Of a DNA stretch of 64,000 bases, positions 1,055-31,380 are shown one piece after another. The notes beneath the pieces were generated by a model. It did no database searches and was not told where the DNA came from. It saw only the letters and a list, made by a program, of their open reading frames with translations. Origin of the DNA: Collybia mongolica (taxonomy: Eukaryota > Basidiomycota > Agaricomycetes > Agaricales > Clitocybaceae); assembly GCA_013420905.1 (NCBI GenBank), contig JAAXNY010000001.1:6758001-6822000 (forward strand), in the 5' to 3' direction. Numbering within the stretch: position 1 is the stretch's first letter; every line of letters begins with the position of its first letter. The translations under genes were made by a program, and so were the position numbers.

Positions 1055-1200
1055 TAAATCAGTATGGAAACAGAAGCAGTAAAGACAGTATAAGCAACTA
1101 AGCTAAGTAGCAAGGACAGTGTTAAGCCGAGTAAAGACAGTAATACAAAGGAGCATGGGGAGGGACACCATAACTCAAGAGGAAGTTAATTGGACTGTCC

Positions 1201-7982: not shown

Positions 7983-8197
7983 CAGTAGGCAACAAAACTG
8001 TTTCAATGTTTTCACATTCTGTAAAGATGCATCCATATGTCAGAAAATAAAAATTGGAAAAATATGAAAAAATTACAGAAGCTGCATTGATGTCATAAAA
8101 TGTTGCTTACATAATGTTTTTGCACCACTTCCATTTTTGGTAGCAAAATCACAGGATACATACAAAGCTATCATTGAAACGGTTTTGTTGCCCATTG
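7983..8197 (+). repeat. Left terminal inverted repeat of the Tc1/mariner element
   Basis: About 215 bp, matching the reverse complement of 9383-9597 with few differences. The motif GGCAACAAAAC occurs at the outer end and again, inverted, at the inner end (about 8180-8192). This is the paired-site layout known from IR/DR-type Tc1 elements. Confidence 0.9.
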
Positions 8198-8231
8198 CAA
8201 AAAAATAAGAAAGTGCTGAGATCTTAACTGT

Positions 8232-8282
8232 AGTCACATGACTTTGTTTATTGTTTAATGTATTAAACAAAGTCATGTGACT
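8232..8282. repeat. 19-bp perfect palindrome ahead of the transposase gene
   Basis: The arms 8232-8250 (AGTCACATGACTTTGTTTA) and 8264-8282 are perfect reverse complements around a 13-nt loop. It lies between the left inverted repeat and the transposase start, where the promoter and 5' UTR should be. A stem-loop in the mRNA or a symmetric protein-binding site are both possible. Confidence 0.8.
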
Positions 8283-8341
8283 TGCTCATGTTTTAATATA
8301 AATACAGAGTGTTCAAGTGCTCTAATGCCCCCAAACACACT

Positions 8342-9358: not shown

Positions 9359-9382
9359 TTTTACCACTTTCTTACTTTTTAA

Positions 9383-9597
9383 TGATGGGCAACAAAACAG
9401 TTTCAATAATGGCTTTGTATGTATCATGTGATTTTGCTACCAAAAATGGAAGTGGTGCAAAGACATTATGTAAGCAACATTATATGACATCAATGCAGCT
9501 TCTGTAATTTTTTCATATTTTTCCAATTTTTATTTTCTGACATATGGATGCATCTTTACAGAATGTGAAAACATTGAAATGGTTTTGTTGCCTACTG
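9383..9597 (-). repeat. Right terminal inverted repeat of the Tc1/mariner element
   Basis: Partner of 7983-8197. It begins just after the transposase stop and ends ...GTTTTGTTGCCTACTG before the TA target copy. Confidence 0.9.
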
Positions 9598-12612: not shown

Positions 12613-14929
12613 TTACTCTCTTTCAGCCTGTCTTTTTAAAATCTGTTGAGTATGATAAAAAAGCATAACATGGATAAACCAATCAAAGTTTTCTCCAGTC
12701 ATTCTTTTCATGATAGATTCAAATCCACTCAACCATGCATTGAGTTGTTCACAAGCCTGTTTTAAAAGTAATAAATATTAAAGTGTGTATAAACAATACT
12801 TACTTGTGTATTGAATGCACACTTGTAGTAAGGATTGCCTTGATTGTCCTGAGCCACAACAACAAGATTTGGTGCAGAACCATTCAAGGGTGCTGGATTA
12901 CACCATTTTTGACACAAGCAATCTGAAGTATGATGATTCTTATAATGATAAACATCAACAATTAATCTTGATGTATCCAGCCAATCATTGTAAATGGGAT
13001 TGGCAAGAGCAGTTCGAAGTACCAAGCAAGCTTTGTCAATGCAGATATAGGATGGTCGAGTTTCTTTCTCAGGATAAACTTTATTTAAAAAGTTGAGAAT
13101 ATTGGTTGGAGATTCAGAACAAGCAAATTTTGTCCAAGCTACCACAACACCACAAGGTTTGCATATAGTTTCAACACAGTAGAACCAAGCAGCAGTAAAG
13201 TAATTTGATTGTATAGTGGTATCATTATTATCTTCATCATGTGGCTGAATATAAGATCTTTGTTGTGGTTGCCAAGGTTGATTCTCATTTGCAGCTCTTT
13301 GCAATACTCTGCAAGCACCAGAAAAGTTATCCCGAGTTTGTCTTTGAACATGTCTCTGCCAGTCTGGCTGATGTTCAGCACAAGCCTGAGTGCCATGAAT
13401 TTTTCCAGTATTACAGTTTTTAACATGACATTTATCACCATATTCAATGTCATGCTCATGGCAAAAGACACCTCCACACATGTTGAACAGTAATTGTGAA
13501 CAGTTTTCAAAAGCACAATGTTGTACACCCATAACAATGCCATCCATGACAATCATATTACATATGCCAGGATTTCCAAGAGGATTAACAAAGTTAACAA
13601 GTGGTAGATTTTGATTGGTAGCATTTTCCACTGCCCATTGTTGATCAAGAGCAGCATCAAGAGCAAATTCACCCATTAGAACAGGAACAGGAGCATTTTC
13701 ATCAACATTAACAACAGCAGCAGGATCATCTCCAGTTAAAAATTCAGCACGTCGTTTATATGGTTGAGTACATTCAGTACAAACATGATCAGTAGCCAAA
13801 GCAATTTTTCCATCTGAGCATAGTTCTTGATATGCTTTTTGAGTTACTTCTTCAATAGAAATATTATCATCCCGAACCGGGGTTTGGTCAGATGCAGCAG
13901 CAATCATGCAAGTGGACTCTTCAACAAACACTTTCCAGACCTGCCGATGGCTCAGATTTAGTCCAGAATTGGCAAAGCTATTGTTCCAAAACTCCATATA
14001 AGCTGCAGTAGATCCATGAAAGCTATATATGGCATTTAGAACTGTTTTGCCAAAAATGCAATCAACCCAAAGTGCTTGACCAGCTTTAAGATATGGAGCT
14101 GACTCCAAATATAATCGTTTAGCTGAGTTGTTGTCAAGTGATTGTTCATGATCAGCATAGTATATAGTGTTGCATTTGAAACATTTCCCAGAAACAATAT
14201 AGGCTTGATCATGAATAGTAGTGCCTTTGATAAGTTTAACACGAGGAATATCAATGTTCTGAGTTTCATGTTTGAGTACATGAAAATTGCAAGATATTGT
14301 CAAGCACACAGGTGTACAGTGGCTCAAAAAACTGCCCCAATGTTTGTACATTTTTGAAAGATCAATATGGTATGAAGTGCTGACATAAGCAGGGGACCTG
14401 GGGTAATTATGTAAGATACTATGACATCGTGGCTTTCCAATGGACCCTGGATCATGTGATTTGGATCAGTATTTGGAGCCAATATATATATTGGTTCAAT
14501 AGCAGCATGAGAAACAGATTTGAGTTTGCCTTTGAATTCATTATTTTTCTGCACAGGATACAAGTGTAACATTTGAGCAAATCCATCAAGTTGTTTGCTC
14601 AAGGCATTAATTCTGCTTTGTTCATTTTTTTCTTTAAACATGCTTGTTTCAGGAAAAAACAATGATGCATCATTGCCTAGCAATTGTATCATGATAAAGG
14701 CAAGAGAAGTCATCCAACCAGTGAAAGATAAACAACCAAATGTCATATCTTTAGCATGAAGACTAAGCAAATCTGTGTTGTTGGTCATTGTGAGCAAAGC
14801 CATAAGTACAGTACTCAGTGGAATTTCAGAATTGAAATTCTCTGATACAAAGATACTGAATTCCTGAAATGAAATATCAGGAAACCTTTGTTCAGGATTA
14901 TAAGCACAAGTGACTGGCAGCCATGTCAA
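12613..14929 (-). pseudogene. CxC5/CxC6 KDZ-type transposase-like gene with one frameshift
   Basis: Resembles the agaric proteins annotated as CxC5/CxC6 cysteine cluster associated with KDZ transposases. The N-terminal exon is followed by a CxC-type cluster (GKCFKCNTIYYADHE, near 14,180), then YSFHGSTAAYMEFWNN. A second Cys/His cluster (CHEHDIEYGDKCHVKNC, about 13,460-13,420) is followed by IDKACLVLRTAL, DVYHYKNHH and a C-terminal exon with CEQLNAWLSGFES. A 47-nt intron (12757-12803) joins the last exon, which stops at 12613. At 14392-14395 a C4 run on the coding strand must be C5 to keep the frame (ITPGP then PAYVSTSYH), so a 1-nt deletion or base-call error breaks the gene. No ATG is visible at the very 5' end; another exon may exist upstream of 14929. 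MDG, IDKAC, and CEQLN are candidate D, D, E catalytic residues (inference). Confidence 0.75.
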
Positions 14930-16392
14930 TGCCAGAATGATCCAAAATCAAAATGCAAGCAGAGATCTCAGTCCAGAGCCAAAAGAATGCCACAGCTAGC
15001 CATGAAGAACAGAATGCATACAAGGCCTGTAATATACTACTAAAAGTTAAACAAAAATACAAACAAAAGTTTATCAAATTGTATCAACTTACTACTTCTT
15101 TGGTTTTACAGCTTTTGAACTTTGACCCTTCTTCCCCATTTTAGGTATGTTCTCTGCATCACGCCCTCCAGAACTTGGTTCCACAGCCTTAGACTTGCCC
15201 TTCTTTTTGCTAAACTGTTTCTGCACTTCTTCAACCTTTTCATCATCCTTGGACTTTTTCAAATCCTTCCCCTGCCCACACAAAAACTTGTGCAGTGATC
15301 CAAGGTTATAATCATCTGCAGAAAATCCCCAAGTTTCTTCATCAGAAAGACGGTCTTCAGTATTTTCCAACCAGTCTATCAGAGCTGGATATTTCTCAAC
15401 AAACTTGAATGGTTCATAATTTGAATAGAAATAAAGGGTTGAAGCAAAGATTCCTTTCAAATCAGCCAGTTTGGCAGCACCTTTCCAGGTGAGAGCATCC
15501 TTCATTTTCTTCATCATTGTATTAGCATGACAGAATTCTTTGTACTTTGCATATGCATAATGCAAAGTATGGTTGCCATGATCCAGATAGAAGTGTTCAA
15601 TCTCCAACTGCATAATCATAGATTGCTGAACAGATGTGAAGCGAGCAACTATGTCAGACTCAGATGTGTTGTTTGATGTAGATGGTTCAGTTTTAGAAGG
15701 CACAGAAACAGTTGGAACAGAAGAAGTTGGAACTTGTGTGAAAGTTGAGGATTCAGATGATTCAGTCTAAAAGTGTTTTTATCAGAGATATACTTCAATA
15801 AATAAAAGTAGTAAAACTTACAAATAAATGCAAAACATATCCATGATCATCATACTTCCAATCCACCATATCATCATCTGAAAGTGCAGCACTGTAGCGA
15901 CCCTTAATGTCCCAAGTTTCTTGATTTGTGTATACATAAATCCAGTGATTGTCATTCTTAATAGGCGAGTATAGATTGCCCAATTTGTAAAGAACAGGAC
16001 CAAGGGAACTGTTAACTGGAATCTGGATAGTCATAGAAGACTTCATAGCCCTTGGATTACTATGCTCAGATTCCATAGACTTATACACATGAACAACACC
16101 CTTGACATTGGGTGGTGCAACAGGTTGGTTATCTTCAAAATCAGCATGGTTCATAGCATTCCCCAATGCCTGACCACAAATGAAACCACCCACAGTACGA
16201 GATGCACCCTGCAGAGAATTCAAGTCTCCACCTACAGTGTAAGACAAACTCAAATCTGCACCATGAGGAGACATATCAATATCCTGGGGCTCAACACCAC
16301 CTGGAGATTGCATTTCTATGTCTACACTATGCTTAGGCGGGGTACGTGGTTCTACATTCTCAGATGATGGGGGTAGAACATCCCCAGACACA

Positions 16393-16528
16393 GAAACTGG
16401 GGGCACAGCCTCCCCAAGACCAGAAACTGGGGGCACAGCCTCCCCAAGACCAGAAACTGGGGGCACAGCCTCCCCAAGACCAGAAGATGGGGGTAGAGCC
16501 TCCCCAAGACCAGAAGATGGGGGCAAAG
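16393..16528. repeat. 30-bp minisatellite inside the companion gene
   Basis: About four and a half copies of a 30-nt unit (GAAACTGGGGGCACAGCCTC...), encoding a ten-residue repeat of the SGLGEAVPPV type on the minus strand. The first copies are identical; the later ones vary in two or three bases. Confidence 0.85.
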
Positions 16529-17131
16529 CCACAAAAGACTGATCTAAAGAAATAGAAACTAAATGTATGATTTGTAGAATCAGAATAAGTTTAACAGGTG
16601 TTATAAAATAAAATCTTACTGTTAGTACCAGCAGGTGATGGGGCACGGGAGATGGCGCAGGATGGGGCAGCCGACGAAATATGAAAAACACCATGGGAGG
16701 AAGGGCCATGGGCAGAGGCGGTGCAGGAGGTGGAGGGGGCATGAGAGGCCGTGGCGGAGAGGCCAGGGGGGGCATGGGAGGTGGAGGGGGCATGAGAGGC
16801 CATGGTGGAGGGGGCATGAGAGGCTGTGGTGGAGGGGGCGCAGGAGGTGGAGGGGGCGCGGGAGGCCGTGGTGGAGAGGCCAGGGGGGGCACGGGAGGTG
16901 GAGGGGGCACAAGCGCCATTGTCACTGCCCTGGGTGTTCTTGTCATTGTCCCGGTTTTCCTCAGTGTCCTCCTCGTCCCCATCTTCCTTGTCCCTGTCTT
17001 CCTCGTCCCTGCTGGCCTCGTTCCCATCCTCCTCGTCCCTGCTTGCCTCATCCCCATCCTCCGTGTCCCCACTCGCCTTGTCCCCATCCTCCTCGTCCCC
17101 ACTTGCCTCGTCCCTGCTCCTGTCCTTGTCT

Positions 17132-17135
17132 CCGT
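17132..17135. repeat. 4-bp target duplication CCGT of Gypsy copy R, left copy
   Basis: CCGT precedes the TG of the left LTR and follows the CA of the right LTR (31377-31380). Fusing the flanks at one copy restores the companion-gene frame, which independently confirms the site. Confidence 0.85.
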
Positions 17136-18353
17136 TGAAAGGGGGCTCCTGGGCTATAAGTGCGCTGATGCTATGAAATGTAATCTCTCTCACACACACA
17201 CACCAAACCTAACAATCAACACACGAACAGTAGGAATCACCTGTTTTGAGTTCGGGTTCAAGTGCTTAGAAGCACTAAGCTTTGAATAGTACTAGCCAAA
17301 GCCTTTTCCAATGATCTCTCGACGGGTTCGATTTAGACAAAAGCTTCAACACAGGTTCAAAAACCTGCTAGGTATATTTATAATATCTCTCGATCCAATA
17401 GACTGAGTACCAAGTGTACGTTCAATTATTAATGATCCCAAGCGGATCTATAAGTCCAAGCGACTTATCAAACAATACAGTGCCAAGTGCACTAAGGCCA
17501 AGTGCCTAGTAATTCCAACGGACAATACGGTACTAAGTTCCAAGTGAACTAAGTTTCTTTAATTCTGTGGTTCTCCAATCAATTCCAATCAAGACACATT
17601 GAAGCAATCTGATCCTTAATTCGGGCACGCAATAGTGTTTTAACAAATGTGATTTGTATACTCTATAGTCGCGCGAAGTGGGGGCAAGATTCCTTACCTT
17701 AGCGCTACTCATCTACAGTCTATTTATAATGTACAAACTAAATATCATACGGAATTGTAAATTTTACACGGAACCGCACTCCCGCGCGCCAAGGATCTGT
17801 ATTCAATACCAACGCGTCTACTACAGCTTGGTGCGCGCGCCACGCGTGCCAATTATGTTGTTTACTGGTTACTTATCAAATATTGAAAGAGCGGGCTAAA
17901 CTCTTATCAAGTCCCGACCGCGCGCTCCGTTATTTAAAACAGCGCGGCACTGTCGTTTACTCCTCCTGATTGTCCCGGTTGTTATTCACGGTGTCCCGTC
18001 GCTTCCGGTAGTTAACACCAAGTACCCCTGACTAGGATCGGGTTGTGCAAGTCCCGAATTTACAATTACTTCTCCTATTAATGATGATCCCTGGACTAAT
18101 GATATCATACTACAACGGTTACTTATGAACTAAGACACCGAGGTTGTAACCGGGCATGGTGAATAGGACTAATAATAGACCGTACTCATAGTCCTCTGTA
18201 CTGATAGTGTATTATCCATTAGACTAGTTCACTCTGATTAGCCGTCTTGGAGCTCGACTCTAATCCTTTATTACCGCTTACTTGGTTATTAGAAATGACA
18301 CTAATAGCCTTACTTGTCGACTTTATAAGTGCAAACAATTTTGGGCCCTATCA
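17136..18353 (-). repeat. 3' LTR of Gypsy copy R (1218 bp)
   Basis: TGAAAGGGGG...GGCCCTATCA on the plus strand. It pairs with 30161-31376. The differences I could find are all transitions, plus a 2-bp length change in a CA/CT run. Confidence 0.95.
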
Positions 18354-18363
18354 TCTCCCCCAT
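18354..18363 (-). other. Polypurine tract of Gypsy copy R
   Basis: On the minus strand ATGGGGGAGA lies directly before the 3' LTR, which fixes the element's direction as leftward. Confidence 0.8.
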
Positions 18364-18805
18364 ACCACAAATGTAGACTGTCCTCAGTCTCTCTTTGCCG
18401 GCATGTTGGTCCAATACTTCGGGTCTGCACGCGTCTAATCTTTCCGTACAATGTTACAACGGTTCCGCTTTTAGACAGGTAGGCGCGCGATGTTGGGATC
18501 GAGCCCAGAGGTTTTACTTCCCATCAGGATCGTGACAGCTATATACGTCTCCTGAGAGAGTACTTGACATTCGGACATCGCTTTACAGATATTTCAGTCA
18601 TCTGGACATTTTTCTCGTTATGTTTCTGACACTTCAGCAAGAGATCGGTACTCCTGTTTGTCTTTCAGAGCTTCGCAATGCAGGGTTGTGCGTTTTAAAA
18701 AGCTCGCGTCCTTGCTAAGTTTTAGACAATTTGGACTTTATAGCCCATTTCTAAATCTCTTTGCTATCTGCATTGCTCAAACGCTCCAACTCTTTTCAAA
18801 CAGAA
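18364..18805 (+). promoter_or_regulatory. Region between 3' LTR and antisense gene A, probable promoter
   Basis: About 440 bp without an ORF of note. A TATA-like word (CTTTATAGCC, about 18,735) lies about 65 bp before the gene A start codon. The region is conserved in copy L. Evidence for promoter function is positional only. Confidence 0.4.
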
Positions 18806-20750
18806 ATGTCTTCCACTTCCACTTCCGCCATGGCTCGTGCTCTGCGCTCGCCTTCCGTGCTGTCCCTCTCGCTTTCTGCCGCGATTCTGCCGACTGAGGG
18901 CCGTTCCCCCACCATGGTCTATGTGGACCAGCCGATCCCTTCCTTCTCGGACCTCCTCGAAGATGCCGAGGGCGACGTCTTCGTCGCTATGGAGCAAGGG
19001 TGGATTATCATGGCCGAGGAGCTCGCGCCCCATATGGACCACCAAGGTCCCCTTGACCTTGATGACTTGATCGACTTTGTCGATCACTGCTCCATGCTCA
19101 TCGTACGCCCATCTTTTACTTGTTAACTCCTTTTACTTATTTACTGGTCTCAGGATGCCATCACTGGCGTGGTCCGTGGCGCGCGTTTCTCGCTGCCATA
19201 TCCGGCTATCCTCCTCCTGCGCGCGCTTCACCTTCAAGTGATGCGCATCCCAGTTGACGCGCGCGAGGCTTCGTGGTCATCCTGGTGTACGGTTATATCA
19301 ACTGACCTGGGCGCCAACTCCATTCTTCTGGTAAATAACTTGTTTACTTCTTTACTCTGCCTCCCCTTGTCAAGCTGACTACCTTGTTCTTTTAGGGCCA
19401 GGCTCCCACTGTGGAGCAAGTCCTTGACCAGGTGGGGTCGCGCTTCGAGCGCGACAATGGTGACAGTATCTTTCGAGATACTTTCCTTGTCCCGCCTCGC
19501 ATGGTTGGCACGCCGCGCCGTTACCATCAGTACCGGGACAATTGGTCCGCCGCGCCCTTGCCGGCGCGCTCCCCGGTCTTGGTACCTGCGGTTCGTTTAT
19601 CACTGCTTTTTATTACTTTCCTTCAGTGGTTGACTTATTTTAATAGCCCCTCAAGCAGAAGCGTAATGCTGGGTCCAAGGGAAAAGGCCGTGCGGTTCCC
19701 CAGGTATATCCTTTACTTTACGAGTTTCACATTATTGCTGACTTGATTTCAAAATTCTAGTCCGACATGTCGCGCGCCCAGGGGACTGGCAGTGCTTCCG
19801 CGCTGCGTCCCTCGGAAGCAGGCCCGGTATGTCTCTTTCTGAAGTCATTTACGTTTACTCATCTTTATCTCCTTAGTCCTCTGGGCAGCCGCCGGTGAAG
19901 GTTGAAGTCCCTGAGCTTCGGCTCTTCGATGATGAGATCGCACGCCAGTTGGCTCAAGAGGGGTTCGCGGAGTTGTTGCCTCCCGCGGCCCCTTCTCCTC
20001 GTCGGTCGCGTAAGACCACCCGCTCTAGGGATAGGGCTCAGGCGACACGCCGCAAGCACGCGCTGGTTCCCAACCGGGAGCTGACACCGCTACAGTCCCC
20101 TATTACCTCCCTGCTGGCTGACCTTGCGCCGCGGCGCTCTTCCGTATGTTTATTACTACTTTATTTCTTGTTACTGATCATTTTTACTAGGTGGGCTATC
20201 CTTGCACGATGTGCGCCACCCGCGGCGACATTGAGTGCACCTTCAACGGTTGGGGTAAACCGTGCGTTGAATGCGCCACCACCAAGAAGGGGAAGTGCAG
20301 CTTCAGCCTCACTCCCCAGAAGCGCGCTAGGCTTCGTGAGGATCTGGGGCCGATGCTTGGTGCGGGCATTTCTAGTAAGCCATTTTCTTTCTGTCTTTTT
20401 GTTTACTAATGATTTTACTTATTCTACTAGCGGTTGCTGAAGCCTATGCTCAGCTAGGCAACGCGGACTCTCTTGCCGCAGAGGTCATTCAGGCCGCTAA
20501 CCGCGCGCTTGAAATGCGCAACTCCTTGTTGGCGCGCATAGTTGGCACCATCGGTAAGTTGTACGAGGAGGAAGGCCTGGAGGGCCTTCAAAACCTCTTG
20601 CTGACTACGCCAGCCACGGAGAGCGCTCTCCTCTTCTACGCGGATTTCCAGAACCTCCCTTGGCCGCCCTTGGAGGAAGAAGCAGAGGTTGATGACGGTT
20701 CTTCGTCGTCAAGTTCCTCTTCGTCCATGCCTGACAGCGAGGAGGAGTAG
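18806..20750 (+). CDS. Antisense gene A of the Gypsy element: eight exons, Zn2Cys6-like protein
   Basis: Gene on the strand opposite to gag-pol. Exons: 18806-19102, 19154-19330, 19396-19590, 19647-19703, 19761-19826, 19877-20143, 20191-20374, 20431-20750. They total 521 codons including stop, with every intron GT-AG and 46-67 nt long; frame is continuous throughout. The predicted product is about 520 aa. Exon 7 encodes C-x2-C-x7-C-x8-C-x2-C-x7-C with basic residues, close to the fungal Zn2Cys6 DNA-binding pattern but slightly longer in the loops. Exon 6 is basic (RRSRKTTRSRDRAQATRRKH). The C terminus has an acidic Ser-rich tail. I do not recognise the full-length family. A DNA- or RNA-binding regulator of the element is plausible (inference). 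Antisense orientation protects the introns from removal in the genomic RNA. Confidence 0.72.
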
Positions 20751-21350
20751 CCGCGCCGCGCCCCCCCCCCTATGTTTTTTTTTTTTTTTTATCTACTTGT
20801 GTTTTCCCGGGCCCCTGTGCCCTTACATACTACTTATTCCCCCGCCTTTCGTTGGGCTTCAATTTTATTAATTGAAGTCCAACACATGTTTCTACATACA
20901 GTCCCCTGGACTATAAACAGTACAATTGGTTTACCCGTTGTTCTATTGTCTTCATAAGAAAGCTTCTGCCCTTGCCCCGGCTACTTAAGTTATAAATAGT
21001 ACGGTTTAATTCTGGTGCAATTCTCTCGATCATTAAGACCGTGGCGCGATCACTGACTTTTTATAGACAATCTATTTCAATCCTTGTAACCTTGGTAGGT
21101 TTTTTTTTTTTTTTTAAATCGGTTTTGCTTATACCCATCTCCCCCTCAACACTGATAACAACTGTCCCAGTTGTCATGCGGACACTGCCGCGCTCCACAT
21201 GAATTTTTACGGAGCTCCTTTTTCAATTGGGCCCAGTATTTCAATTAGGCACGCGTCTCGGACCTGTTCAGTTGAAATGTATAGATTTTTCTGGGGGTAG
21301 AGCGCGCGCAATGAATGAGAGACTGGGTAGCGCTTCTCTAGTCATAGAGG
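20751..21350. other. Spacer between antisense genes A and B
   Basis: 600 bp without genes. It has a poly(T) run after the gene A stop (about 20,774-20,790) and another at about 21,101-21,115; the first is shared with copy L, the second is much shorter there. Probably the 3' end of gene A and the promoter of gene B. Confidence 0.45.
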
Positions 21351-21360
21351 TATAAAAAGG
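21351..21360 (+). promoter_or_regulatory. TATA box of antisense gene B (copy R)
   Basis: TATAAAAAGG about 97 bp upstream of the gene B ATG, conserved in copy L. A good core-promoter match and well placed. Confidence 0.55.
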
Positions 21361-21456
21361 GGATTGGCTGTGCTTTCTGTCCAAAGACATCGCCCGACTC
21401 TATTATACTCTCTTTACATCGTTCTGTATCGAAGAACCAATTTCCTCTGCATCATT

Positions 21457-22839
21457 ATGACTAGCCTCCCCAACTATCAAGACATCGAGAACTTCAAGAT
21501 GGTCCAAGCTCTGTGGAACACCTTCCAAGCTCGTTTATCGATGGACACCCTTGTTGAACAAAGGGTCAGCGTCCGGAAGTTAGGTGAAACCGCGGTACAC
21601 TTTTTACCAATTTAACTTTTATACGCCGTTATCGTAACCAACTTTTACAATTTACAGCTACTCCTGACTGAGTCCAAAATGGTTTTGACGGAGCGGTCCT
21701 GGCAGAATGTTATCTTTGGCATCCGTAAAGCATTCCAGGGACTACAACATGTATACCCCGAGTTACTTCAAGAGCCCGTCTACCGCAACATTGTGACTCT
21801 TACTGCCGCTATTCACCGTCACCGTGAAAAGCTCCACACTGAGCACCTGTCTCAAACCGCGGTGCGTGCTTTTTACCTCATCTTGTACTGTACTGTTCTT
21901 TTTAAACCATGGTTTTCTGGTACTAGGTCCCTGCTACTGGTGGTGAAGCAGATGGTACCACTATTCCAGGCGAGGTCATTGCTGGCGGTGAATATGACGG
22001 TGACATTGAAATGTCTGGTACTGACTCGGTATGTTTCTTTTTAGCTACCGCGCTGTCAGTGCGCGACATACTCAATGGCGTCTCTTCTTTACTCAAGAAT
22101 ATGGTCATTGATTCCGGCGCTACGGCTAGTGCTGCTGTCTCTGGATCAGTGACTAGTCGTCTCCTTAGTGAAGGACCAATCACCCGTAGCCGCAAGGAGA
22201 AGGAGAACATTAAGGTTCCCCGTGTCAAAAGGACTAAGGCTGAAAAGGCTGCCATCAAGGTACCCGTTCTTGTTTTTGCTCTGTCTATTACTTTGTTTCT
22301 TATTCCTACAGGACGGTAAGCGTTCCGAGCTCAATCGCAGCAGCACTCTTCGTCCCAAAAAGTGTACGAGGCAGGACACCCCGGATGAAGATCCAAAGGC
22401 ATCTGCTGAGGGTACGTTTTCTAATAATAGATGGTTCTAAATTTATACCGACTGTGCATCAGATACTCGTGTCTTTATTGACTTCCGTCCCTCCAAGGAG
22501 CACGATGTAGTCTTAGTGCGGGCGCGCTTGATTGCAGACGCGGGCGATCCCATGTCGCACACCAAGCAAGCCCTCGGTAGGATGCTCTTAAACTACCGTG
22601 CTGAGTTGGAGGAGATCAGTCATACAGTTTCCTTCTTATTGAAGCGTCGTGATGCCACTATGGACAAGGTTACTCGCCTCAACGGTCTAATGAACGAGGC
22701 CGCTCTGGAGGGGGGCTCTGACGAGGCTGCCACTGCGAGCGCTACGGAAGTCCATGACCAGGATGACAATGATAAGGAGGAGGTAGCTCCGGCTGACGTG
22801 CCCTTGCCCGAGGTTGAAGACGACTTCATATCTGCTTGA
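21457..22839 (+). CDS. Antisense gene B of the Gypsy element: six exons, unknown protein
   Basis: Exons: 21457-21594, 21658-21861, 21927-22028, 22098-22259, 22312-22411, 22463-22839. They sum to 361 codons including stop (360 aa) with continuous frame and GT-AG introns of 51-69 nt. The first two exons are helical and hydrophobic/charged without Cys. Exon 4 contains ITRSRKEKENIK and VKRTKAEKAAIK, a basic stretch that could bind nucleic acid or act as a nuclear signal. The last exon has a coiled-coil-like region and an acidic tail. No family is recognised. Exon 3 could be joined differently; the 69-nt intron after it is the only choice of normal length. The 3' end lies 147 bp from the pol stop. 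Confidence 0.68.
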
Positions 22840-22985
22840 GGACAGTCCAATTAACTTCCTCTTGAGTTATGGTGTCCCTCCCCATGCTCCTTTGTATTAC
22901 TGTCTTTACTCGGCTTAACACTGTCCTTGCTACTTAGCTTAGTTGCTTATACTGTCTTTACTGCTTCTGTTTCCATACTGATTTA

Positions 22986-25900
22986 TCACCTATGCAACTT
23001 CCGGTGTGCCATAGTAGTTTGTGGTAGCGCCGGCGCTATCCCCTCCTCAGTGTTCTCACTAGAGCTTGACTCTGAATCGGACTGATCCAATTGGACTCTG
23101 TCAAAAGTATAGTCACGCTCCTTGTAAACTTGCCTATTAGCGGGATCTTTCGATTCCACGAAAGCATTTAGTGTTTCGCTAGAGATGTCTATTAGGTCTT
23201 GCAGATTATCTGGCAGTTCAATTGTACTCCTAGCAAAATAGGGAATAACCCTAAACGCCCCCACTTTATGTTGCCACACCGATCCATCCATTTCGCAAAC
23301 AATATAGGCTCCCCCGCGGTTTCGTCTCAGGACTATCATTGGTCCCAGGTACCGTGGCTTCAGCTTTTTATCGAGCGAACTTTCGACCTCGGTATTTCTA
23401 ACTAGTACTAAACTTCCTGGTTTGAAATCATAGTCTCTGATGGTCGCGCTGTGATCCTTCTCATACTGTAATAGTCTCCTTCGTTTTTCTATATTGATAC
23501 GTTTCCTCATATCGGCCACATGCTGGACGTGCTTAGCTAGAGCCTGCGCTCTAAACCCAATGAGTTCCTCTGTAGTCAATATTTTTCCTGGTAACTTTAC
23601 TAACCAAGTGGCTTCAATAATATCTAACGGTAAGGTTGGGTGCGCGCCCGTAATCATAAAATAGGGGGAGCAACCCGTCCCTTTCCGTATAGTAATTCTG
23701 TCAGCCCACATTACATGGTGGAAGAAGTAGTACCACTTCTTTACATCACCACCTGTAGCTTTGAAGACAGCTTGACGCACATCCCAATGTGCGCGCTCGG
23801 CAATCCCATTTCCTTTGGAATTGTATGGTGATATACTTATTCCTGTAATACCATACTTGGATTCCAGCCACGCTTTGGCTGCGACAAAGGCAGGACCATT
23901 ATCCGTTACAATTTCCGTTAGGGAACCCCATCTACAAATTACTTCTTCGAACAGCCACCTTCCCAAGGTCTTGCCATCCTCAGATCAGAGGGGCGCGCCT
24001 TCCATCCACGAAGACAGAGCACATCTTCCTTGGACAATGTATTTATAACCATTAGACGATGGGCTCATATACATGGTGTCCGCATGCAATACTTGGAATA
24101 TAGACGGCGTGTGGGTTATGACAGGAGGGATTCTCAACAAAGTTAAGAGCCTTGTCTGACAGATGTGACATGACTTCACATACCATGATACATCGCGTTC
24201 CATTTCTGGCCACCAAAATCTTTTATCTATTAAGGATTTTGTTGCATAGAAACCCCTATGTCCAACAGAATCGTGAGACGCCTTCATCATATATGTTCGG
24301 TGATTTTTATCAACAACAAGCTGGTGCGCGCTATTGATACTTTTCCTATACATCCTGCCTTCTGGATCCAAAAAGAAATTAGACGCCTGCCTTGCAAACT
24401 TTAGGTAGGCGCGATCTGTCATTCCTTTTGGTCTCTTTTGTGGTCTTTTTAACCATTCTTTTATTAAAGGTAGGTTTTTATCCTGTTCCTGCGCCGTAGG
24501 TGTTCGTTTAGACTTGTCATATACTTCCCTTACATTAGGGTCATATTTAAACTTTTCATCGGGTATGACAGTAGTATTTACAAGTTGCTTTAGATAAGCT
24601 TCTCTTTGAATACCGAACCATCCTAAACCTAAGTGCTGTTTTACTTCTCCAATAAATGCTGCTTCACCAGCCCAGGCATTGTTTACTTCAACTTCAAAAT
24701 CAGAGATTTCCTTCGCAAGTTGGAATAAATATCCGCCGCGCGTGTCAATCTCCTCTTTAAAATCTGACAGCTCCAAAGGGTCATCTAACCCTTCCGTTGG
24801 GTTGATAAACTTTAAAGGACCTGAGGGTTCGTCGTAACCATCGTCTGGGTCCGGGTAGACAGGATCCCCTAGCCGTGCGTCTCGTCTTGACAGACCATCT
24901 GGGCCAAAGCCTTTACCAGCTTTATGAACCAGAGTAAAGTGGAACATAAGTATCCTATCAATCCACCTATTTACCGTTGCATTAGGTCCTAGACTTGGGT
25001 TTGATAACATCCCCTTAATGTACTTTGCATCCGTTTCCACTACCAAATTTCGTACTCCAATAAACCAATAATAACATGCCATTAGAACTCTCATCAATCC
25101 GAATAGCTCTCGTTTGGGTTGTGAGAAGCGCGCTTCGCGCTCATTCAGAGTTATCGAGTCAAATCTAGCATAGTGCTTTCTTCCAGGTATATCAGGGTCT
25201 TCCTGATAGATATAGTAGCCTACGGCTTTCCATGACGTATCTACTGACAATACCACTGGCGTATTCCAGGTGTAATTAATTGGACGGAGCGCGGGGCTAT
25301 TTTTAAGTGCGTCTAACAATAGCTGCTGCGCTTCTTCTTGCTCAGGCCCCCATATCCAAGGTTCACTACTTCTAGTTAACTTTTGAATTGGTTGGCCTAT
25401 ACGGGCAAAGTCTTTAATGAAATTCCGGCATACACCAATAGTTCCCATGTAAGCGCGTACTTCACTGACATCTTTGCATGGTCCCCATCTTTCAACTACA
25501 CCGATTCTATCTGTAGTAGGTTTTCGTCCTTCATAGGTACATCTATGTCCTACCACTAGAATTTCACTTGCGCATAACATAGACTTATATCCTGAAAACG
25601 TTCCTCCAGAATACTTCATTCTCTGTACGACGCAATTTACATTTTGCATATGTTCCCAGAAGAAGCGCCTAACACCTGGAGCACCAGGTAGCTCTTCTTC
25701 TGTTCCATCCGGCAGTTCGTAGCGCGTTGCTGGACCGCGCACGGGTACATCATCAATGTAGGGTATTGTGACATGTGGTACCTCATCCTGTAGGATGTAT
25801 GTGACATCATCATGAAATATTGGAACTGAATTCGTCCATCCCATAGGAAGTGTTACTAGTCTCAGCGCGCCAAACGGTGTTTGGAACGTGGTTAGATCAC

Positions 25901-27029
25901 GCGAGGTTTCTGCTAAAGGCCTCTCATCGTATCCTACGTATAGATCCATCATTCCGCCACAAGCGCGCCCTGCGAAGTGTTCTGCTAGTTCTTCGGTAGC
26001 GGGTGGTAAGCCCAAGTGCGCTATTGTGACTGCATTCAGCGGTTCTAGACTATGTACAATTCTAAGCTTCTTTCCTGGGCCTTTCTTTAATACAGTAAAC
26101 CATCTAGACCTATATGATGAATTGGATCTCTCATAGACTCCTGCATCAATTTTAGTTTTGATGATTTTACAAACATCTTCATAGATCCCTGGTGGGATTA
26201 TAATGTTCCTTTCTGTCCACGGCGTATGTGGGACTACTGGTATCTCGACGGGAGGAAAATATTCCTTCTTAAAGCTACCGTGCTCACTATCATTCCAAGC
26301 AAAACCATCATTATGTTTGCACATAAAGTCGTGGATTATATCCATCTCTTTAGGTTTTAAGAAGCTCTCTTCTTCGTGTACCCTTTGGAATTCCGCGCGC
26401 CTTTCCTCAGTATACCTTCCAGTTGGTTTAAACGGAGGTGGGTTAGGCGTTAGAACGGGTAGGGCCGCTAAAGGGTCACCCTTTATATCTCTGATAATTC
26501 TAAATTTATCAGGCAGGTCCGCCAGTGTTGGTTTTGTTTTCAAATGTACTGGTTTATACTTCTTTCCTACTAGCTGATCCATGGGCTCAATATTACACTT
26601 TTCACTTGTTGCAGTTCCAAGACCGCGCTCATTGGTGCCAATTTGCCACCGCTTTAATTTACTTAAAGCTTTATCGATCATGGGCTGTTCTTGAGCGTAT
26701 GTCATAGGTCTAGTGGGTGTACTTGCTGGGTCGCTGCTGTTCTGCTCGTAGTTTATTACTGGTCCATCGCGCTCATCTACGGAAGCCAAGTACGTGGCTA
26801 GTAATTCGCGTTCAGGTACTGTACTATTCATGTTCACATCACTTCTAGACAAAAAGACATCTCTAAGTTCTTTGTGACCAAAATTCCGTTTATCAGTAGG
26901 GTGTCTATAACCCGTTATAATAAAGTTTCCGTTCTCATCTTCAGCAATTTCTACGGCTAGCTCTCCTTGATCACTTTGGATTAATTCATCGAAGGCCGAA
27001 AATCCTGCTCCGGTTGTCTTTTCAACAGC
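22986..27029 (-). pseudogene. pol: Gypsy pol: RT, RNase H, integrase, with one in-frame UGA
   Basis: The open frame runs from 27029, in the -1 frame relative to the protease ORF and overlapping it by 49 nt, which suggests expression by -1 frameshifting. Domain order: reverse transcriptase with YIDDVPV as the catalytic YxDD box (about 25,750), RNase H beginning near SVDTSWKAVGYYIYQ, integrase zinc-binding HHCC (SHDSVGHRG ... CHICQ), integrase core with HADTMYM, TDNGPAF and GIAERAHWD as D-D-E, then a GPY/F-like module. The frame is broken by TGA at 23985-23987, between the first and second catalytic Asp of integrase. The 955 codons before it and 326 after are otherwise intact. The same stop occurs in copy L. 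Confidence 0.9.
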
Positions 27030-28186
27030 TTAGGCGGTGATCCCTTTGCATGGGTAGGGATAGTACACCTTTGTCCCGTGTTAGGGTCCGTGATAGTGAC
27101 TACTTGTCCCCCGTCCCGAGCATTTTTGATCTGACTTTCCGTGAGTGTATCAAACAGTCTCCCAAGCAATACTTTGTATGCGGGTGAATTTATGATATGT
27201 ACTTGGAGGTAGATGGCCATGTCATTAAACAAGAAAGGAACATTGCGCGCTAATCCCGCTGTTTTCTCAACTTGTTTATTAGCACTCTGCATGTGTATGA
27301 CAACATCCGGATCCCATGAAATATCCAAGTCTAAAGCCGTTTGTTTAGCCATTGATACTATTTGGGATCCCCCATCTAATAAAGATTCCTCCGTTCCTGC
27401 CCCATTTATTACTGGATATACTGCGCGCAAAGAGGCCGATTCTTTTGCTACATACAACTGTTTGGGCTCTTCCCCAGCTGGTAAAGATTCTAAATACTGT
27501 AGGACTGGGTCTCCACATATTATAGATCCCTTAGGTATTCCGCCGCGGTCATACTCCGAGATGAAGAAAGACTGGAATGGGATTGACTCTACTGGTAGCG
27601 CGTCATGCCGTAAGTAGTTATCATCAAGTTCCCAGTCCCCTCCAAAGGGTAAGACGTCTTCCTCATCTATTCCGTTTATTTGCAAGTTAGCGTCCCTTTG
27701 GGTGAGGGACTTACGTCTGGCAGTTACAATATTCTTTATCCCATCTCTAATGGTTTTTGACGAGCCCATTAACTCTCCCGTGGTCAATGTGATAGGGTTG
27801 TCTAACACTTTAGCAATTATATCGCCACCTTTTAATTTTACTTCTATCGGGGACTTAGTTTCATAAGTCGGACCGCGCTTAGTGTTAAAATTAGGTAGCG
27901 GATCAACTGGTTCAGGGTTGCGTTCCGTTCTCCGGGGTATGTAGGGTACCACGGGCACATCGATGTAGGGTAATTCTTTTCGTACTGGAGACTTTACTGA
28001 TGGTTCAACAAATTTTACTTTCTTTTTCCTAGGAGACGGCGCTACCAACTCCTCTTCGCTACTATCCCGACTACTCTCCGAATCGTTACTTTCTTGACGA
28101 CTATTTCTGTTTTTATTTCGGTCCTCTGGCTGTCTCTTGGAACGCGACCTAGTCGTAGGTCTAGCATGTTCCTTAGCCTCCTTCAT
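26981..28186 (-). CDS. Gypsy aspartic protease ORF
   Basis: 401 aa in its own frame, starting 5 nt after the gag stop codon. The N-terminal half is basic and serine-rich with low complexity. The protease core is near residue 270: LLDGGSQIVSMA, where DGG stands in place of the usual D-S/T-G, followed by a hydrophobic strand and VLLGRLFDTL, matching the ILLGRPF-type flap end of retropepsins. The ORF ends 49 nt inside the pol frame. The separate gag and protease frames suggest re-initiation or frameshifting for both steps. DGG is unusual; whether it is active cannot be judged here. Confidence 0.8.
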   Translation of the reverse strand: MKEAKEHARPTTRSRSKRQPEDRNKNRNSRQESNDSESSRDSSEEELVAPSPRKKKVKFVEPSVKSPVRKELPYIDVPVVPYIPRRTERNPEPVDPLPNFNTKRGPTYETKSPIEVKLKGGDIIAKVLDNPITLTTGELMGSSKTIRDGIKNIVTARRKSLTQRDANLQINGIDEEDVLPFGGDWELDDNYLRHDALPVESIPFQSFFISEYDRGGIPKGSIICGDPVLQYLESLPAGEEPKQLYVAKESASLRAVYPVINGAGTEESLLDGGSQIVSMAKQTALDLDISWDPDVVIHMQSANKQVEKTAGLARNVPFLFNDMAIYLQVHIINSPAYKVLLGRLFDTLTESQIKNARDGGQVVTITDPNTGQRCTIPTHAKGSPPKLLKRQPEQDFRPSMN

Positions 28187-28191
28187 CGGAC

Positions 28192-29703
28192 CTAATTGAA
28201 ACCCGACTCTTTAACCTTGTTTTGGTTATTGAGTTCTGCTACCTGCCCTAATAAAGTACTCATTTGTGCTTGTAAGGCTACTATGTCAGGATTCGGCGCG
28301 CTCTTTGCTGTAGGATTATAGTTATTATTTATATATTCCTGTTTCTGCATCTGAGGCGGTACTGGCAACGCAGTTTGCGCGCTCTGTTGTCCTAACATTT
28401 GTTGCGCTTGAAATTGTGCCATTTGTGCCATTATGGCTTTCAAGGTTCCAATGTCGTTACTATTGTCTACTGCATTATGTGACTGCATAACGGACAATAC
28501 TCCTGGAGCGGGTCCTTCCGTGACATCTCCGTAATAAAGGGCTGCTACCTTCTTTGAATGGAAGTGTTCCACTTTATCTTTCAATGATACCGTTTCTGGT
28601 TCTCTTGGAATATATGATCCGTCTGGTAAGCATACTCCTCCATTTGCGTTGGTTTTTATTTTCCCTTCCTCAAAATGTTTCTGTTTCTCGGGACAGGCCA
28701 TTATGAAGTGTCCGGGTGTAAAACAGTAGTGACATTTATACGCATTTGGTCTTTGCGGTTGTCCTTCTTTAGGCTTTCCGTACTGATTCTGATACTGATG
28801 TTGCTGGGGTGCGCTATTCGCGGCATGGTTCTGAACAGTTGCTTGTTGAAGCGCTTTCATTACATCCTCGAATCCACTCCTCGTATTCTTCTCATTTACT
28901 TGGAGACGGTCTAACAAATTAACTATTTGTTGTTTTATTTCATCCATCTCTACTTTGATTTTGGGCGCTGCTGTTGCTGTTACAGACGTTATAAACGATC
29001 TATTTGTGTCTGGAATATTCATGTTGGCTACACCTTCAGAAATGCTGATTGCAGTTGCTATAACTTCCTCCAGATCGTACTGATCCCCTTTTCGTCGCGC
29101 GAGCGCGGCGGCTTCAGCAATAGTATTAGGATCTGCTTGGTTGTTTGTAGCAACGGCTTGTCCTGCCTGTGTAGCATTAGACTGATTATTCCCTAGCAGG
29201 GTTAGCCTTCCTTGTACTTGGGATCTGAAGACTTCGTCTAGACATCCCAAAAACTTGGTAACTAATTCTCGGTTAGAGATAATAGGTGGCCTAACTCCCA
29301 AGAGTTTAATAGATTCTGCTTTGAATTCACGCTTCAGCTTTTTCAGCGCGGCCTCATCGGTTACTCCAATACGTGGGTTGGCGCGACACACTGCTTCTAA
29401 CTTGGCTACTGATCCTTCTACTTGATCGAGTGCTTCCGGATAACTAGAGATCAACTCTGTCTTGAAATCCGTCCAAGTGCCTGTCTTATAGTGGTCTAAT
29501 GCCCTCCACTCATTCTCTGATTGTAGGTCTGCGTATTTTCCTAACATTAACTTCTTTTCTTCATCATTTGTAATGTTACACTCCTTCCATAGGACCTCCA
29601 TTCGCTCCAGAAACCGGATTAAACCCGTGGGCTCTTTTCCTTTGAATACTGGTGCATCACGGACGCCTGGTTGGGGCATATATTTACGAGGGGGTTCAGT
29701 CAT
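28192..29703 (-). CDS. gag: Gypsy Gag with zinc knuckle
   Basis: 503-aa structural protein. The central region resembles the retrotransposon Gag capsid (FLERMEVLWKEC..., about residues 30-180). A CCHC zinc knuckle follows at about residue 325: CHYCFTPGHFIMAC (C-x2-C-x4-H-x4-C). The C-terminal part is Gln- and Asn-rich. The frame is fully open. It is the first ORF after the 5' LTR with a leader of about 450 nt. Confidence 0.9.
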   Translation of the reverse strand: MTEPPRKYMPQPGVRDAPVFKGKEPTGLIRFLERMEVLWKECNITNDEEKKLMLGKYADLQSENEWRALDHYKTGTWTDFKTELISSYPEALDQVEGSVAKLEAVCRANPRIGVTDEAALKKLKREFKAESIKLLGVRPPIISNRELVTKFLGCLDEVFRSQVQGRLTLLGNNQSNATQAGQAVATNNQADPNTIAEAAALARRKGDQYDLEEVIATAISISEGVANMNIPDTNRSFITSVTATAAPKIKVEMDEIKQQIVNLLDRLQVNEKNTRSGFEDVMKALQQATVQNHAANSAPQQHQYQNQYGKPKEGQPQRPNAYKCHYCFTPGHFIMACPEKQKHFEEGKIKTNANGGVCLPDGSYIPREPETVSLKDKVEHFHSKKVAALYYGDVTEGPAPGVLSVMQSHNAVDNSNDIGTLKAIMAQMAQFQAQQMLGQQSAQTALPVPPQMQKQEYINNNYNPTAKSAPNPDIVALQAQMSTLLGQVAELNNQNKVKESGFN

Positions 29704-30140
29704 GATTACTGAACGGTTCTGAGTAGCTAAACGAGTTCGGGTTTGCTACTGGGTTTACTACGGACGATCTTCCGCGCGCTACTGGTTTACTAGTAGTCAA
29801 TATGTTTCCTAAGGGCTCTGGAGTTCTAAATACTTGCCTTGGTCCTGAAGATCCAAAGGCTGGTTGTGAAGATCCTCATGTGCGCGCTCGCCTAGGAGGT
29901 GGTAACGACTCTGTTACTCCAGCGTTTTGCGAATTTTTAGTCTGCCGCGTTTTTGTAGCTACTTGTCTTGCAAGTGGCTGATTAGTTAGTCTGTTTGACG
30001 AGCTGGCTTGTGGGCGTGGCTCTAGAGACAGATTGACTAAACTTTCTCCGCTCTACTTCAATTTGTAGACGACGTTACTCGTCTTGGTATAATATTTTTC
30101 AAAGAAAGATGCTCTCTTTAGACTATTCAAAAACTCTGAA

Positions 30141-30158
30141 CCCTCGCGGTGGGCTCCA
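30141..30158 (-). other. Primer-binding site of Gypsy copy R
   Basis: On the minus strand TGGAGCCCACCGCGAGGG starts 2 nt inside the 5' LTR. TGG complements the CCA end of a tRNA; the primer would be a tRNA ending CCCTCGCGGTGGGCTCCA. I could not assign the tRNA identity from memory. Confidence 0.65.
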
Positions 30159-30160
30159 GA

Positions 30161-31376
30161 TGAAAGGGGGCTCCTGGGCTATAAGTGCGCTGATGCTATG
30201 AAATGTAATCCCTCACACACACACACCAAACCTAACAATCAACACACGAACAGTAGGAATCGCCTGTTTTGAGTTCGGGTTCAAGTGCTTAGAAGCACTA
30301 AGCTTTGAATAGTACTAGCCAAAGCCCTTTCCAATGATCTCTCAACGGGTTTGATTTAGACAAAAGCTTCAACACAGGTTCAAAAACCTGCTAGGTATAT
30401 TTATAATATCTCTCGATCCAATAGACTGAGTACCAAGTGTACGTTCAATTATTAGTGATCCCAAGCGGATCTATAAGTCCAAGCGACTTATCAAACAATA
30501 CAGTGCCAAGTGCACTAAGGCCAAGTGCCTAGTAATTCCAACGGACAATACGGTACTAAGTTCCAAGTGAACTAAGTTTCTTTAATTCTGTGGTTCTCCA
30601 ATCAATTCCAATCAAGACACGTTGAAGCAATCTGATCCTTAATTCGGGCACGCAATAGTGTTTTAACAAATGTGATTTGTATACTCTATAGTCGCGCGAA
30701 GTGGGGGCAAGATTCCTTACCTTAGCGCTACTCATCTACAGTCTATTTATAATGTACAAACTAAATATCATACGGAATTGTAAATTTTACACGGAACCGC
30801 GCTCCCGCGCGCCAAGGATCTGTATTCAATACCGACGCGTCTACTACAGCTTGGCGCGCGCGCCACGCGTGCCAATTATGTCGTTTACTGGTTACTTATC
30901 AAATATTGAAAGAGCGGGCTAAACTCTTATCAAGTCCCGACCGCGCGCTTTGTTATTTAAAACAGCACGGCACTGTCGTTTACTCCCCCTGATTGTCCCG
31001 GTTGTTATTCACGGTGTCCCGTCGCTTCCGGTAGTTAACACCAAGTACCCCTGACTAGGATCGGGTTGTGCAAGTCCCAAATTTACAATTACTTCTCCTA
31101 TTAATGATGATCCCCGGACTAATGATATCATACTACAACGGTTACTTATGAACTAAGACACCGAGGTTGTAACCGGGCATGGTGAATAGGACTAATAATA
31201 GACCGTACTCATAGTCCTCTGTACTGATAGTGTATTATCCATTAGACTAGTTCACTCTGATTAGCCGTCTTGGAGCTCGACTCTAATCCTTTATTACCGC
31301 TTACTTGGTTATTAGAAATGACACTAATAGCCTTACTTGTCGACTTTATAAGTGCAAACAATTTCGGGCCCTATCA
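30161..31376 (-). repeat. 5' LTR of Gypsy copy R (1216 bp)
   Basis: TGAAAGGGGG...GGCCCTATCA on the plus strand, direct repeat of 17136-18353, followed by the CCGT duplication. Confidence 0.95.
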
Positions 31377-31380
31377 CCGT
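31377..31380. repeat. 4-bp target duplication CCGT of Gypsy copy R, right copy
   Basis: Matches 17132-17135. Confidence 0.85.

What the first reader, a model, noticed from the sequence alone, without database searches (positions are those of the whole stretch)
17136..31376. A 14.2-kb Gypsy retrotransposon carries two intron-rich genes antisense to gag-pol
Between pol and the 3' LTR lie genes A (8 exons, 520 aa) and B (6 exons, 360 aa) on the opposite strand. Exon sums are exact multiples of three, all introns are GT-AG and 46-69 nt, and both copies in the window keep the same exons. An antisense gene keeps its introns through the RNA stage, since splice sites on the genomic RNA strand are absent. 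So the cargo has probably been carried through repeated transposition as an intron-containing gene. Extra antisense ORFs are known in some plant LTR elements; I do not know of a described fungal family with a spliced antisense pair.
Basis: partly seen in the sequence, partly recalled or inferred. Interest (0 to 1): 0.88.

Follow-up and report, generated by a model that had tools for sequence, protein, structure and literature searches.

The report
Spliced antisense genes in fungal retrotransposon
A jumping element present in about a hundred copies in this genome carries two extra genes on its opposite strand, full of introns and kept in working order by natural selection, which suggests that the element runs its own backward-coded accessory genes.

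Summary
Confirmed and strengthened. Window 17136-31376 is a complete Ty3/Gypsy element on the - strand (1218/1216-bp LTRs, CCGT duplication). B keeps exon lengths and GT-AG sites in 30 of 30 close copies (29 frames open). A is intact in 14 of 14 copies picked as full-length, but its 3' part in only 20 of 26 copies not picked for A. Outside CpG sites, changes shared between copies are strongly synonymous in the predicted frames (omega 0.17 A, 0.27 B, 0.14 integrase), not in shifted frames. The tested spliced junctions (one per gene) are absent genome-wide; a piece of a B exon occurs at 92 places. Two other Gypsy families here carry one antisense gene with predicted introns at the same place, with a six-cysteine motif like A's. 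Most likely A and B are the element's own accessory genes, A perhaps a DNA-binding regulator (inferred; no RNA data). Antisense genes are known in Boty, Grande and Retand, a spliced one in HTLV. New variant of a known kind: intron-rich, under selection, across families.

The parts
17132..17135 (.). target-site duplication CCGT, left
   Evidence: flanks printed
17136..18353 (-). 3' LTR (element sense), 1218 bp, TG...CA
18354..18361 (-). polypurine tract GGGGGAGA next to the 3' LTR
18694..18702 (+). TTTAAAAAG, TATA-like, 112 nt before the gene A start codon (weak: the second window copy has one A fewer)
   Evidence: pattern chosen after the fact
18806..20750 (+). gene A, 8 exons: 18806-19102, 19154-19330, 19396-19590, 19647-19703, 19761-19826, 19877-20143, 20191-20374, 20431-20750; 520 aa
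   Evidence: selection
20203..20298 (+). six-cysteine motif CX2C-X7-C-X8-C-X2-C-X7-C in exon 7 of gene A
21351..21359 (+). TATAAAAAG, 106 nt before the gene B start codon; TATAAAA core in 30 of 30 aligned copies (28 of 30 letter for letter)
21457..22839 (+). gene B, 6 exons: 21457-21594, 21658-21861, 21927-22028, 22098-22259, 22312-22411, 22463-22839; 360 aa
   Evidence: selection
22986..23984 (-). pol, C-terminal part: integrase core and C-terminal region (by sequence; no Pfam match over cut-off); out of frame with the rest of pol in this copy
23985..27029 (-). pol: reverse transcriptase (weak Pfam match), RNase H, integrase H2C2 zinc domain
26981..28210 (-). DUF4100-like region and aspartyl-protease-like region (both below Pfam cut-off)
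28192..29745 (-). gag with CCHC zinc knuckle (26.2 bits, cut-off 27)
30141..30158 (-). putative tRNA primer-binding site TGGAGCCCACCGCGAGGG (primer tRNA not identified)
30161..31376 (-). 5' LTR (element sense), 1216 bp
31377..31380 (.). target-site duplication CCGT, right

Best explanation
A and B are accessory genes of a Ty3/Gypsy element, coded antisense to gag-pol between pol and the 3' LTR. Shown: open exon structures, presence in many copies, absence of the tested spliced junctions from the genome, and purifying selection on both proteins similar to that on integrase. Inferred: they are transcribed from internal promoters facing the other way (TATAAAAAG 106 nt before B), spliced in the nucleus and translated. 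Their introns survive because the genomic RNA is the other strand, on which these introns cannot be spliced, and because the antisense mRNA is not copied back. Inferred and less certain: gene A's six-cysteine motif makes it a DNA-binding nuclear protein that regulates the element's own transcription, a role like that of HTLV HBZ or the one proposed for Grande gene23 and Retand TRP28 proteins, with B as partner.
For: Exons and GT-AG sites: B 30/30 close copies, open frame 29/30; A 14/14 chosen copies and 20/26 copies not chosen for A, 3' part only. No exonic indel in those 14 and 30. Non-CpG omega on shared changes: A 0.17, B 0.27, integrase 0.14; their shifted frames 1.55 to 10.6; B read on the other strand 1.36. 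91 of 92 listed exon-6 matches of B, counted by hand in a list that was cut (113 of 288 candidates scored), and 107 of 110 exon-7 matches of A (110 of 110 candidates scored) have no internal stop. B exon-4 piece 92 places, reversed control 0; spliced junctions 0 for B 4|5 and A 2|3. Two further LTR-bounded families with an antisense gene with predicted introns at the same place. Six cysteines kept in 14 of 14 A copies; 0 of 50,000 shuffles of protein A hold the motif, which was defined after seeing A. TATAAAA core of B in 30 of 30 aligned copies.
Against: No RNA or protein evidence. The regulatory role is unproven: no Pfam zinc-cluster match at E up to 10 (the program drops most matches above about 0.1), AlphaFold model of the motif exon at mean pLDDT 46, uninformative, only chance-level solved-structure hits, best E 0.2. 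None of the 7998 (A) or 8000 (L064-family protein) scored candidates is a homologue. BLAST finds no significant similarity between A and the other families' proteins. B has no recognised domain. Three of the 30 B loci have other sequence in place of part or all of the 3' part of A, so B and integrase can persist beside a lost A.
Confidence: 0.57

Rival explanations
1. A and B are true spliced antisense accessory proteins but do not regulate transcription; they serve another step, such as nuclear entry of the integration complex, target choice, particle function or defence against host silencing.
For: Selection and structure show that the proteins matter but not what they do; no domain is recognised; B lacks the cysteine motif.
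Against: Six-cysteine motif in A and in the antisense proteins of two other families; antisense retroviral proteins of known role include nuclear regulators (PMC10186651, passages).
Confidence: 0.3
2. A and B are host genes captured by one ancestral element and carried as cargo, useful to the host or to nobody.
For: Ordinary small GT-AG introns, as in fungal genes.
Against: Of 110 matches to A exon 7 (all candidates scored), 107 are at least 82% identical and the other three are 75%, 70% and 68%, the last two short; no clearly separate host gene is seen, though most of these places were not inspected for context. Constraint is on changes shared among element copies; a comparable gene sits in two other families.
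Confidence: 0.07
3. The antisense RNA, not a protein, is the product, for instance a trigger of small RNAs against the element; the open frames are incidental.
For: Antisense transcripts can feed silencing (PMC7264820, two of three parts of the text read).
Against: Frame-specific synonymous excess and lack of exonic indels in the aligned close copies.
Confidence: 0.03
4. Chance open frames and chance splice signals, or copies too young to have decayed.
For: Many copies are recent; LTR-LTR non-CpG substitutions are 5 in about 1216 sites.
Against: Young age cannot make changes prefer synonymous sites in one frame only nor keep indels to introns.
Confidence: 0.01

Closest known systems
Boty-like elements of Botrytis cinerea with the antisense gene brtn (Zhao et al. 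2011; title and mentions seen in PMC8365987 and PMC7264820, original not read)
   Same: Fungal LTR element with an additional antisense gene between pol and the 3' LTR
   Different: Reported as one gene; whether brtn is spliced was not checked, and homology of the proteins was not tested. Here two genes with 7 and 5 introns; no chromodomain was matched in the scanned pol frames
Plant Retand lineage (antisense TRP28 proteins; PMC11963269, passages)
   Same: [quoted passage not shown] proposed to bind DNA
   Different: TRP28 (PF04195) not found in A or B; the word 'intron' does not occur in that paper's main text
Maize Grande gene23 and rice RIRE2 (PMC7264820, two of three parts read)
   Same: Antisense gene between pol and 3' LTR; Grande's is transcribed from its own promoter and its protein is nuclear, role unknown
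   Different: Plant elements with other proteins; homology with A or B was not tested
HTLV-1 hbz and the APH genes of HTLV-2, -3, -4 (PMC10186651, passages)
   Same: Spliced antisense gene of an LTR retroelement; HBZ is nuclear and APH-3 and APH-4 suppress 5' LTR transcription
   Different: Promoter in the 3' LTR; HBZ is a bZIP protein; infectious retrovirus. Here two genes with many predicted introns and an internal TATA box

Membership tests
Ty3/Gypsy LTR retrotransposon | LTR pair with TG...CA ends, target-site duplication, polypurine tract | tested here: met
   4-bp CCGT duplication
Ty3/Gypsy LTR retrotransposon | gag, then RT-RNase H, then integrase order | tested here: met
   RNase H (PF17919, PF17917) and H2C2 (PF17921) over cut-off, in that order; RVT_1 16.7 bits, below its cut-off of 29.6; the integrase core was recognised by eye, no Pfam core match
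[quoted passage not shown]
   3 of 30 loci have lost or replaced the 3' part of A, and one more ends at a contig end
LTR elements with antisense ORFs between pol and 3' LTR (aORF-3R) | antisense transcription | not testable with these tools
   no RNA data held
Retand | TRP28 domain (PF04195) in the antisense protein | tested here: not met
   Pfam scan of A and B
Boty with brtn | antisense protein homologous to BRTN | not tested
   no BRTN sequence was at hand
Zn2Cys6 (Gal4-type) zinc-cluster proteins | match to the Pfam zinc-cluster family | tested here: not met
   no family listed at E <= 10 for A exon 7, whose filters drop most matches above about 0.1
Zn2Cys6 (Gal4-type) zinc-cluster proteins | spacing CX2CX6CX5-12CX2CX6-8C (recalled from memory) | tested here: inconclusive
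   six cysteines present, but X7 where X6 is usual

The most novel reading that the evidence does not exclude
A lineage of fungal Gypsy elements carries, as an ancestral trait, an intron-bearing antisense gene for a six-cysteine DNA-binding regulator of the element itself; its introns have passed through many rounds of reverse transcription since before the families split, because the gene is expressed only from the strand that is never reverse transcribed. One branch has expanded the module to two intron-rich genes.
Probability: 0.42. Interest if true: 0.78.

Novelty: new variant of a known kind. Interest (0 to 1): 0.62.

Why it matters
Antisense accessory genes of LTR elements have been noted for years without a known function, in the papers seen here as ORFs without reported introns. 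A case with 12 predicted introns, measurable selection in about a hundred copies of one assembly, and comparable genes in two other families turns the question into something testable: splicing shows which strand is read, selection shows that the protein matters, and the promoters and motif say where to look. It would also be a clean natural demonstration that introns survive retrotransposition when a gene lies antisense to the genomic RNA.

Tried and rejected
Protein homologue searches with A (7998 candidates scored) and with the spliced antisense protein of L064 (8000 scored) found nothing at E <= 0.001; B was not searched. Pfam, PDB-sequence and AlphaFold looks at the motif exon were uninformative; the model was too poor for a fold search, so none was run. 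My first automatic gene finder gave wrong results because its start positions were off by one; models were then set by hand. The first alignment had minus-strand loci unturned and was replaced.

Rejected: chance ORFs; noncoding antisense product; a nested insertion apart from the element (in one search all 30 B copies have integrase sequence beside them, 98% or more identical). A-B similarity (BLAST E 0.45) is too weak to call them duplicates.

Results against or limiting: 7 of 12 deliberately diverged B copies are broken or have a replaced 5' part, and 6 of the 12 were left out of the divergent test. The A copies were picked from hits listed as full length (12, plus two window copies), so 14/14 is not a random sample; in 26 B loci that also hold the 3' part of A, 20 are intact, three have frame-breaking indels, two lost a donor, one lost its stop codon, and one of the 20 has a 3-nt in-frame deletion. 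The 30 B copies are the best-scoring ones. L011 and L029 were dropped from the integrase test. In the L064 family (4 copies) omega is 0.43, p 0.03, but one shifted frame also gives 0.73 (p 0.30); L069 has a stop and an exon 3 shorter by 15 nt in frame, and L070 and L071 are cut by the ends of my stretches. In the L063 family (3 copies) there are too few changes (omega 0.61, p 0.55; a shifted frame 0.69) and two of three copies are broken. L063 intron 2 is a 54-nt in-frame choice that I made because it removes one in-frame TGA; its phase is therefore not independent evidence. The motif expression was written after seeing A; it also hits a low-complexity stretch in L064. In one search the query 'as63a' was translated one base out of frame with stop signs deleted by mistake; its rows are not used. 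treat variable columns as independent.
Full report
What is there. The window lies in a 46-Mb genome of 26 contigs. The interval 17136-31376 is one LTR element read on the - strand: LTRs 17136-18353 and 30161-31376 with TG...CA ends, the 4-bp repeat CCGT outside, a purine tract GGGGGAGA beside the 3' LTR and a TGG-beginning putative primer site beside the 5' LTR. gag with a CCHC knuckle (just below cut-off), RNase H and an H2C2 integrase domain follow in Gypsy order. The reverse transcriptase matches Pfam weakly (16.7 bits, below cut-off), yet 97 scored copies of this region in the genome (of 390 candidates) are at least 90% identical. In this copy pol is split in two frames (1014 and 332 aa), where many copies have one 1347-aa frame.

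The antisense genes. No sense frame longer than 135 aa lies in that interval, so there is no long env-like gene.

Copies. DNA searches returned 40 scored places for B (of 123 candidates) and 43 matches for A (40 of 130 candidates scored). A 30-base piece of B exon 4 occurs at 92 places with up to two mismatches, with none for the reversed control. In 30 B copies (window plus L010-L038) every exon length and every splice dinucleotide is kept and 29 frames are open; introns 1 and 2 vary in length. In 14 A copies, 12 chosen from full-length hits plus the two in the window, all exon lengths, splice sites and frames are kept, while introns 2-6 vary in length. Distinct indel patterns in these sets: A exons 0 in 1563 nt, introns 9 in 382; B exons 0 in 1083, introns 8 in 300. 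A sample not chosen for A is less perfect: of the 30 B loci, 26 hold the 3' part of A (exons 6 in part, 7, 8) at 90% identity or more; 20 are intact, three have frame-breaking indels in exon 6, two lost the donor of intron 6 and one lost its stop codon. Of the other four, L022 ends at a contig end and L010, L028 and L038 have other sequence in part or all of that stretch. Older copies decay: of 12 B copies chosen for divergence, 5 are open from start to stop and 7 are broken or have a replaced 5' part.

Selection. Old copies are dominated by CpG transitions (arginine codons turned to Cys, His, Gln, Trp), which mimic amino-acid change. I therefore classed each variable site as CpG transition, other transition or transversion and compared nonsynonymous and synonymous counts with what the sequence offers in each class. 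Outside CpG, changes shared by two or more copies: A 21 N/49 S, omega 0.17; B 16 N/23 S, omega 0.27; integrase 6 N/18 S, omega 0.14 (28 copies), each at the simulation floor p = 5e-5. Changes seen in one copy: A 0.21 (p 5e-5), B 0.32 (p 0.03), integrase 0.25 (p 0.002). Six diverged B copies with the window: 0.12 shared (p 5e-5), 0.48 single (p 0.002). The same columns read in shifted frames give shared-change values of 1.55 and 2.26 (B), 2.57 and 4.26 (A), 10.6 and 1.74 (integrase); B on the opposite strand gives 1.36. CpG changes are nearer neutral: values from 0.49 (A shared, p 0.02) to 1.73 (B single). So both antisense proteins have been under constraint, comparable to integrase, during spread of the element.

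Introns and reverse transcription. The spliced junction of B exons 4 and 5 and that of A exons 2 and 3 occur nowhere in the genome at up to two mismatches; the other ten junctions were not searched.

Relatives. DUF4100 hits led to two other Gypsy families in this genome. In BLAST blocks their integrase is 47% and their RT/RNase H and H2C2 blocks 39-59% identical to the window's. Each is LTR-bounded: C5:417620-418615 with 428335-429321 at 98.3% and CCGG on both sides, and C14:63916-64919 with 74542-75545 at 100% (a 4-bp ACGC duplication there is my reading after shifting the LTR end by one base). Both carry one antisense gene between pol and the 3' LTR, which I modelled by hand with 3 exons: 505 aa in L063 and 677 aa in L064. 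These two proteins are related to each other (BLAST E 5e-9) while their pols are about 77% identical, so the antisense gene evolves faster than pol. With A they share no significant BLAST similarity, but all three have C-X2-C-X7-C-X7/8-C-X2-C-X6/7-C beginning four or five residues after a predicted intron. That intron is phase 0 in A and L064; in L063 I chose an in-frame 54-nt intron to remove one TGA, so its phase is not independent. Of nine fetched stretches next to DUF4100 hits, seven show the motif on the strand opposite to DUF4100; L066 holds a copy of the window's own family and L067 only the end of pol. In the L064 family exons 1 and 2 agree in length in 4 of 4 copies, one copy has a stop and an exon 3 shorter by 15 nt, two are cut by my stretch ends, and omega is 0.43 (p 0.03; shifted frames 2.17 and 0.73). 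The L063 family gives no test (three copies, two broken). The L064 motif exon occurs at six places in the genome, all without stops.

Where A comes from. All 110 candidates for A exon 7 were scored and matched, 107 of them without an internal stop; 107 are at least 82% identical, two of the remaining three are short, and one (75%) is a remnant without B or pol in the stretch fetched. No host donor gene stands out. The protein collection gave no relative of A among the candidates scored although it gave many relatives of this pol.

How it most likely works. Shown: structure, copy number, selection, lack of the tested spliced junctions. Inferred: B starts from an internal TATA box (TATAAAAAG at -106, core in 30 of 30 aligned copies) and A perhaps from a TATA-like site at -112 (weaker; the second window copy differs); transcripts are spliced and translated. 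Inferred with less confidence: A, with its six-cysteine motif, a basic stretch RRSRKT and an acidic, serine-rich tail, is a nuclear DNA-binding protein that tunes expression of the element. This resembles HTLV HBZ, a spliced antisense product with a nuclear role (PMC10186651, passages), and the proposals for Grande and Retand (PMC7264820, two of three parts read; PMC11963269, passages).

What is known. Antisense genes between pol and the 3' LTR are known in plants and in the fungal element Boty (brtn; PMC7264820; PMC8365987, passages; PMC5987419, one passage; the 2011 paper itself was not read). Ten paper searches were made; in their listings and the passages read (also PMC3411680 on Laccaria, where 'antisense' does not occur) I saw no fungal Gypsy family with an intron-rich antisense gene or pair. 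The library lacks most subscription papers, so this is weak evidence of absence.

Verdict. It is a new variant of a known kind, scored 0.62 because the proteins' function is open and expression is unseen.

Noticed in passing
window 1-2142 and 21898-24039 (and RT at G000:C1:6755818-6757110): The two inverted copies in the window are 100% identical from B exon 2 through the pol sequence in the window, and their RT proteins are 100% identical, sharing the same split pol frame, yet they differ by 3-10% in A and by about 3% in the LTRs: gene conversion between neighbours or a local copying event.
   Followed up: partly
L010, L028, L038: In these B copies part (L010: exon 6 and some of exon 7) or all (L028, L038) of the 3' part of A is other sequence, so B and integrase persist where A is lost or replaced.
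   Followed up: partly
L012 and L030 (exon 6 of A): Two copies both show a 1-base deletion in A exon 6; whether it is the same event was not checked.
   Followed up: no
L039-L050, and the LTR pair of the window element: Old copies decay mainly by transitions at CpG, as in methylated DNA.
   Followed up: partly
L072 (G000:C1:3857500-3865500): Remnant with A exons 6-8 at 60-77% identity but no B or pol match in the fetched stretch.
   Followed up: partly
window 12765-14465 (-): ORF with CxC5 and CxC6 cysteine clusters associated with KDZ transposases.
   Followed up: no
window 7981-9599: DDE_3/Tc3-type transposase ORF (8300-9355) inside 235-bp inverted repeats 7981-8215 and 9365-9599 at 94%: probably a small DNA transposon.
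   Followed up: no
window 16381-17114: Cluster of 15-30-bp tandem repeats directly beside the element's 3' LTR.
   Followed up: no
three families: window element, C5 element, C14 element: 4-bp target duplications (CCGT, CCGG, probably ACGC) rather than the 5 bp usual for Gypsy (recalled).
   Followed up: partly
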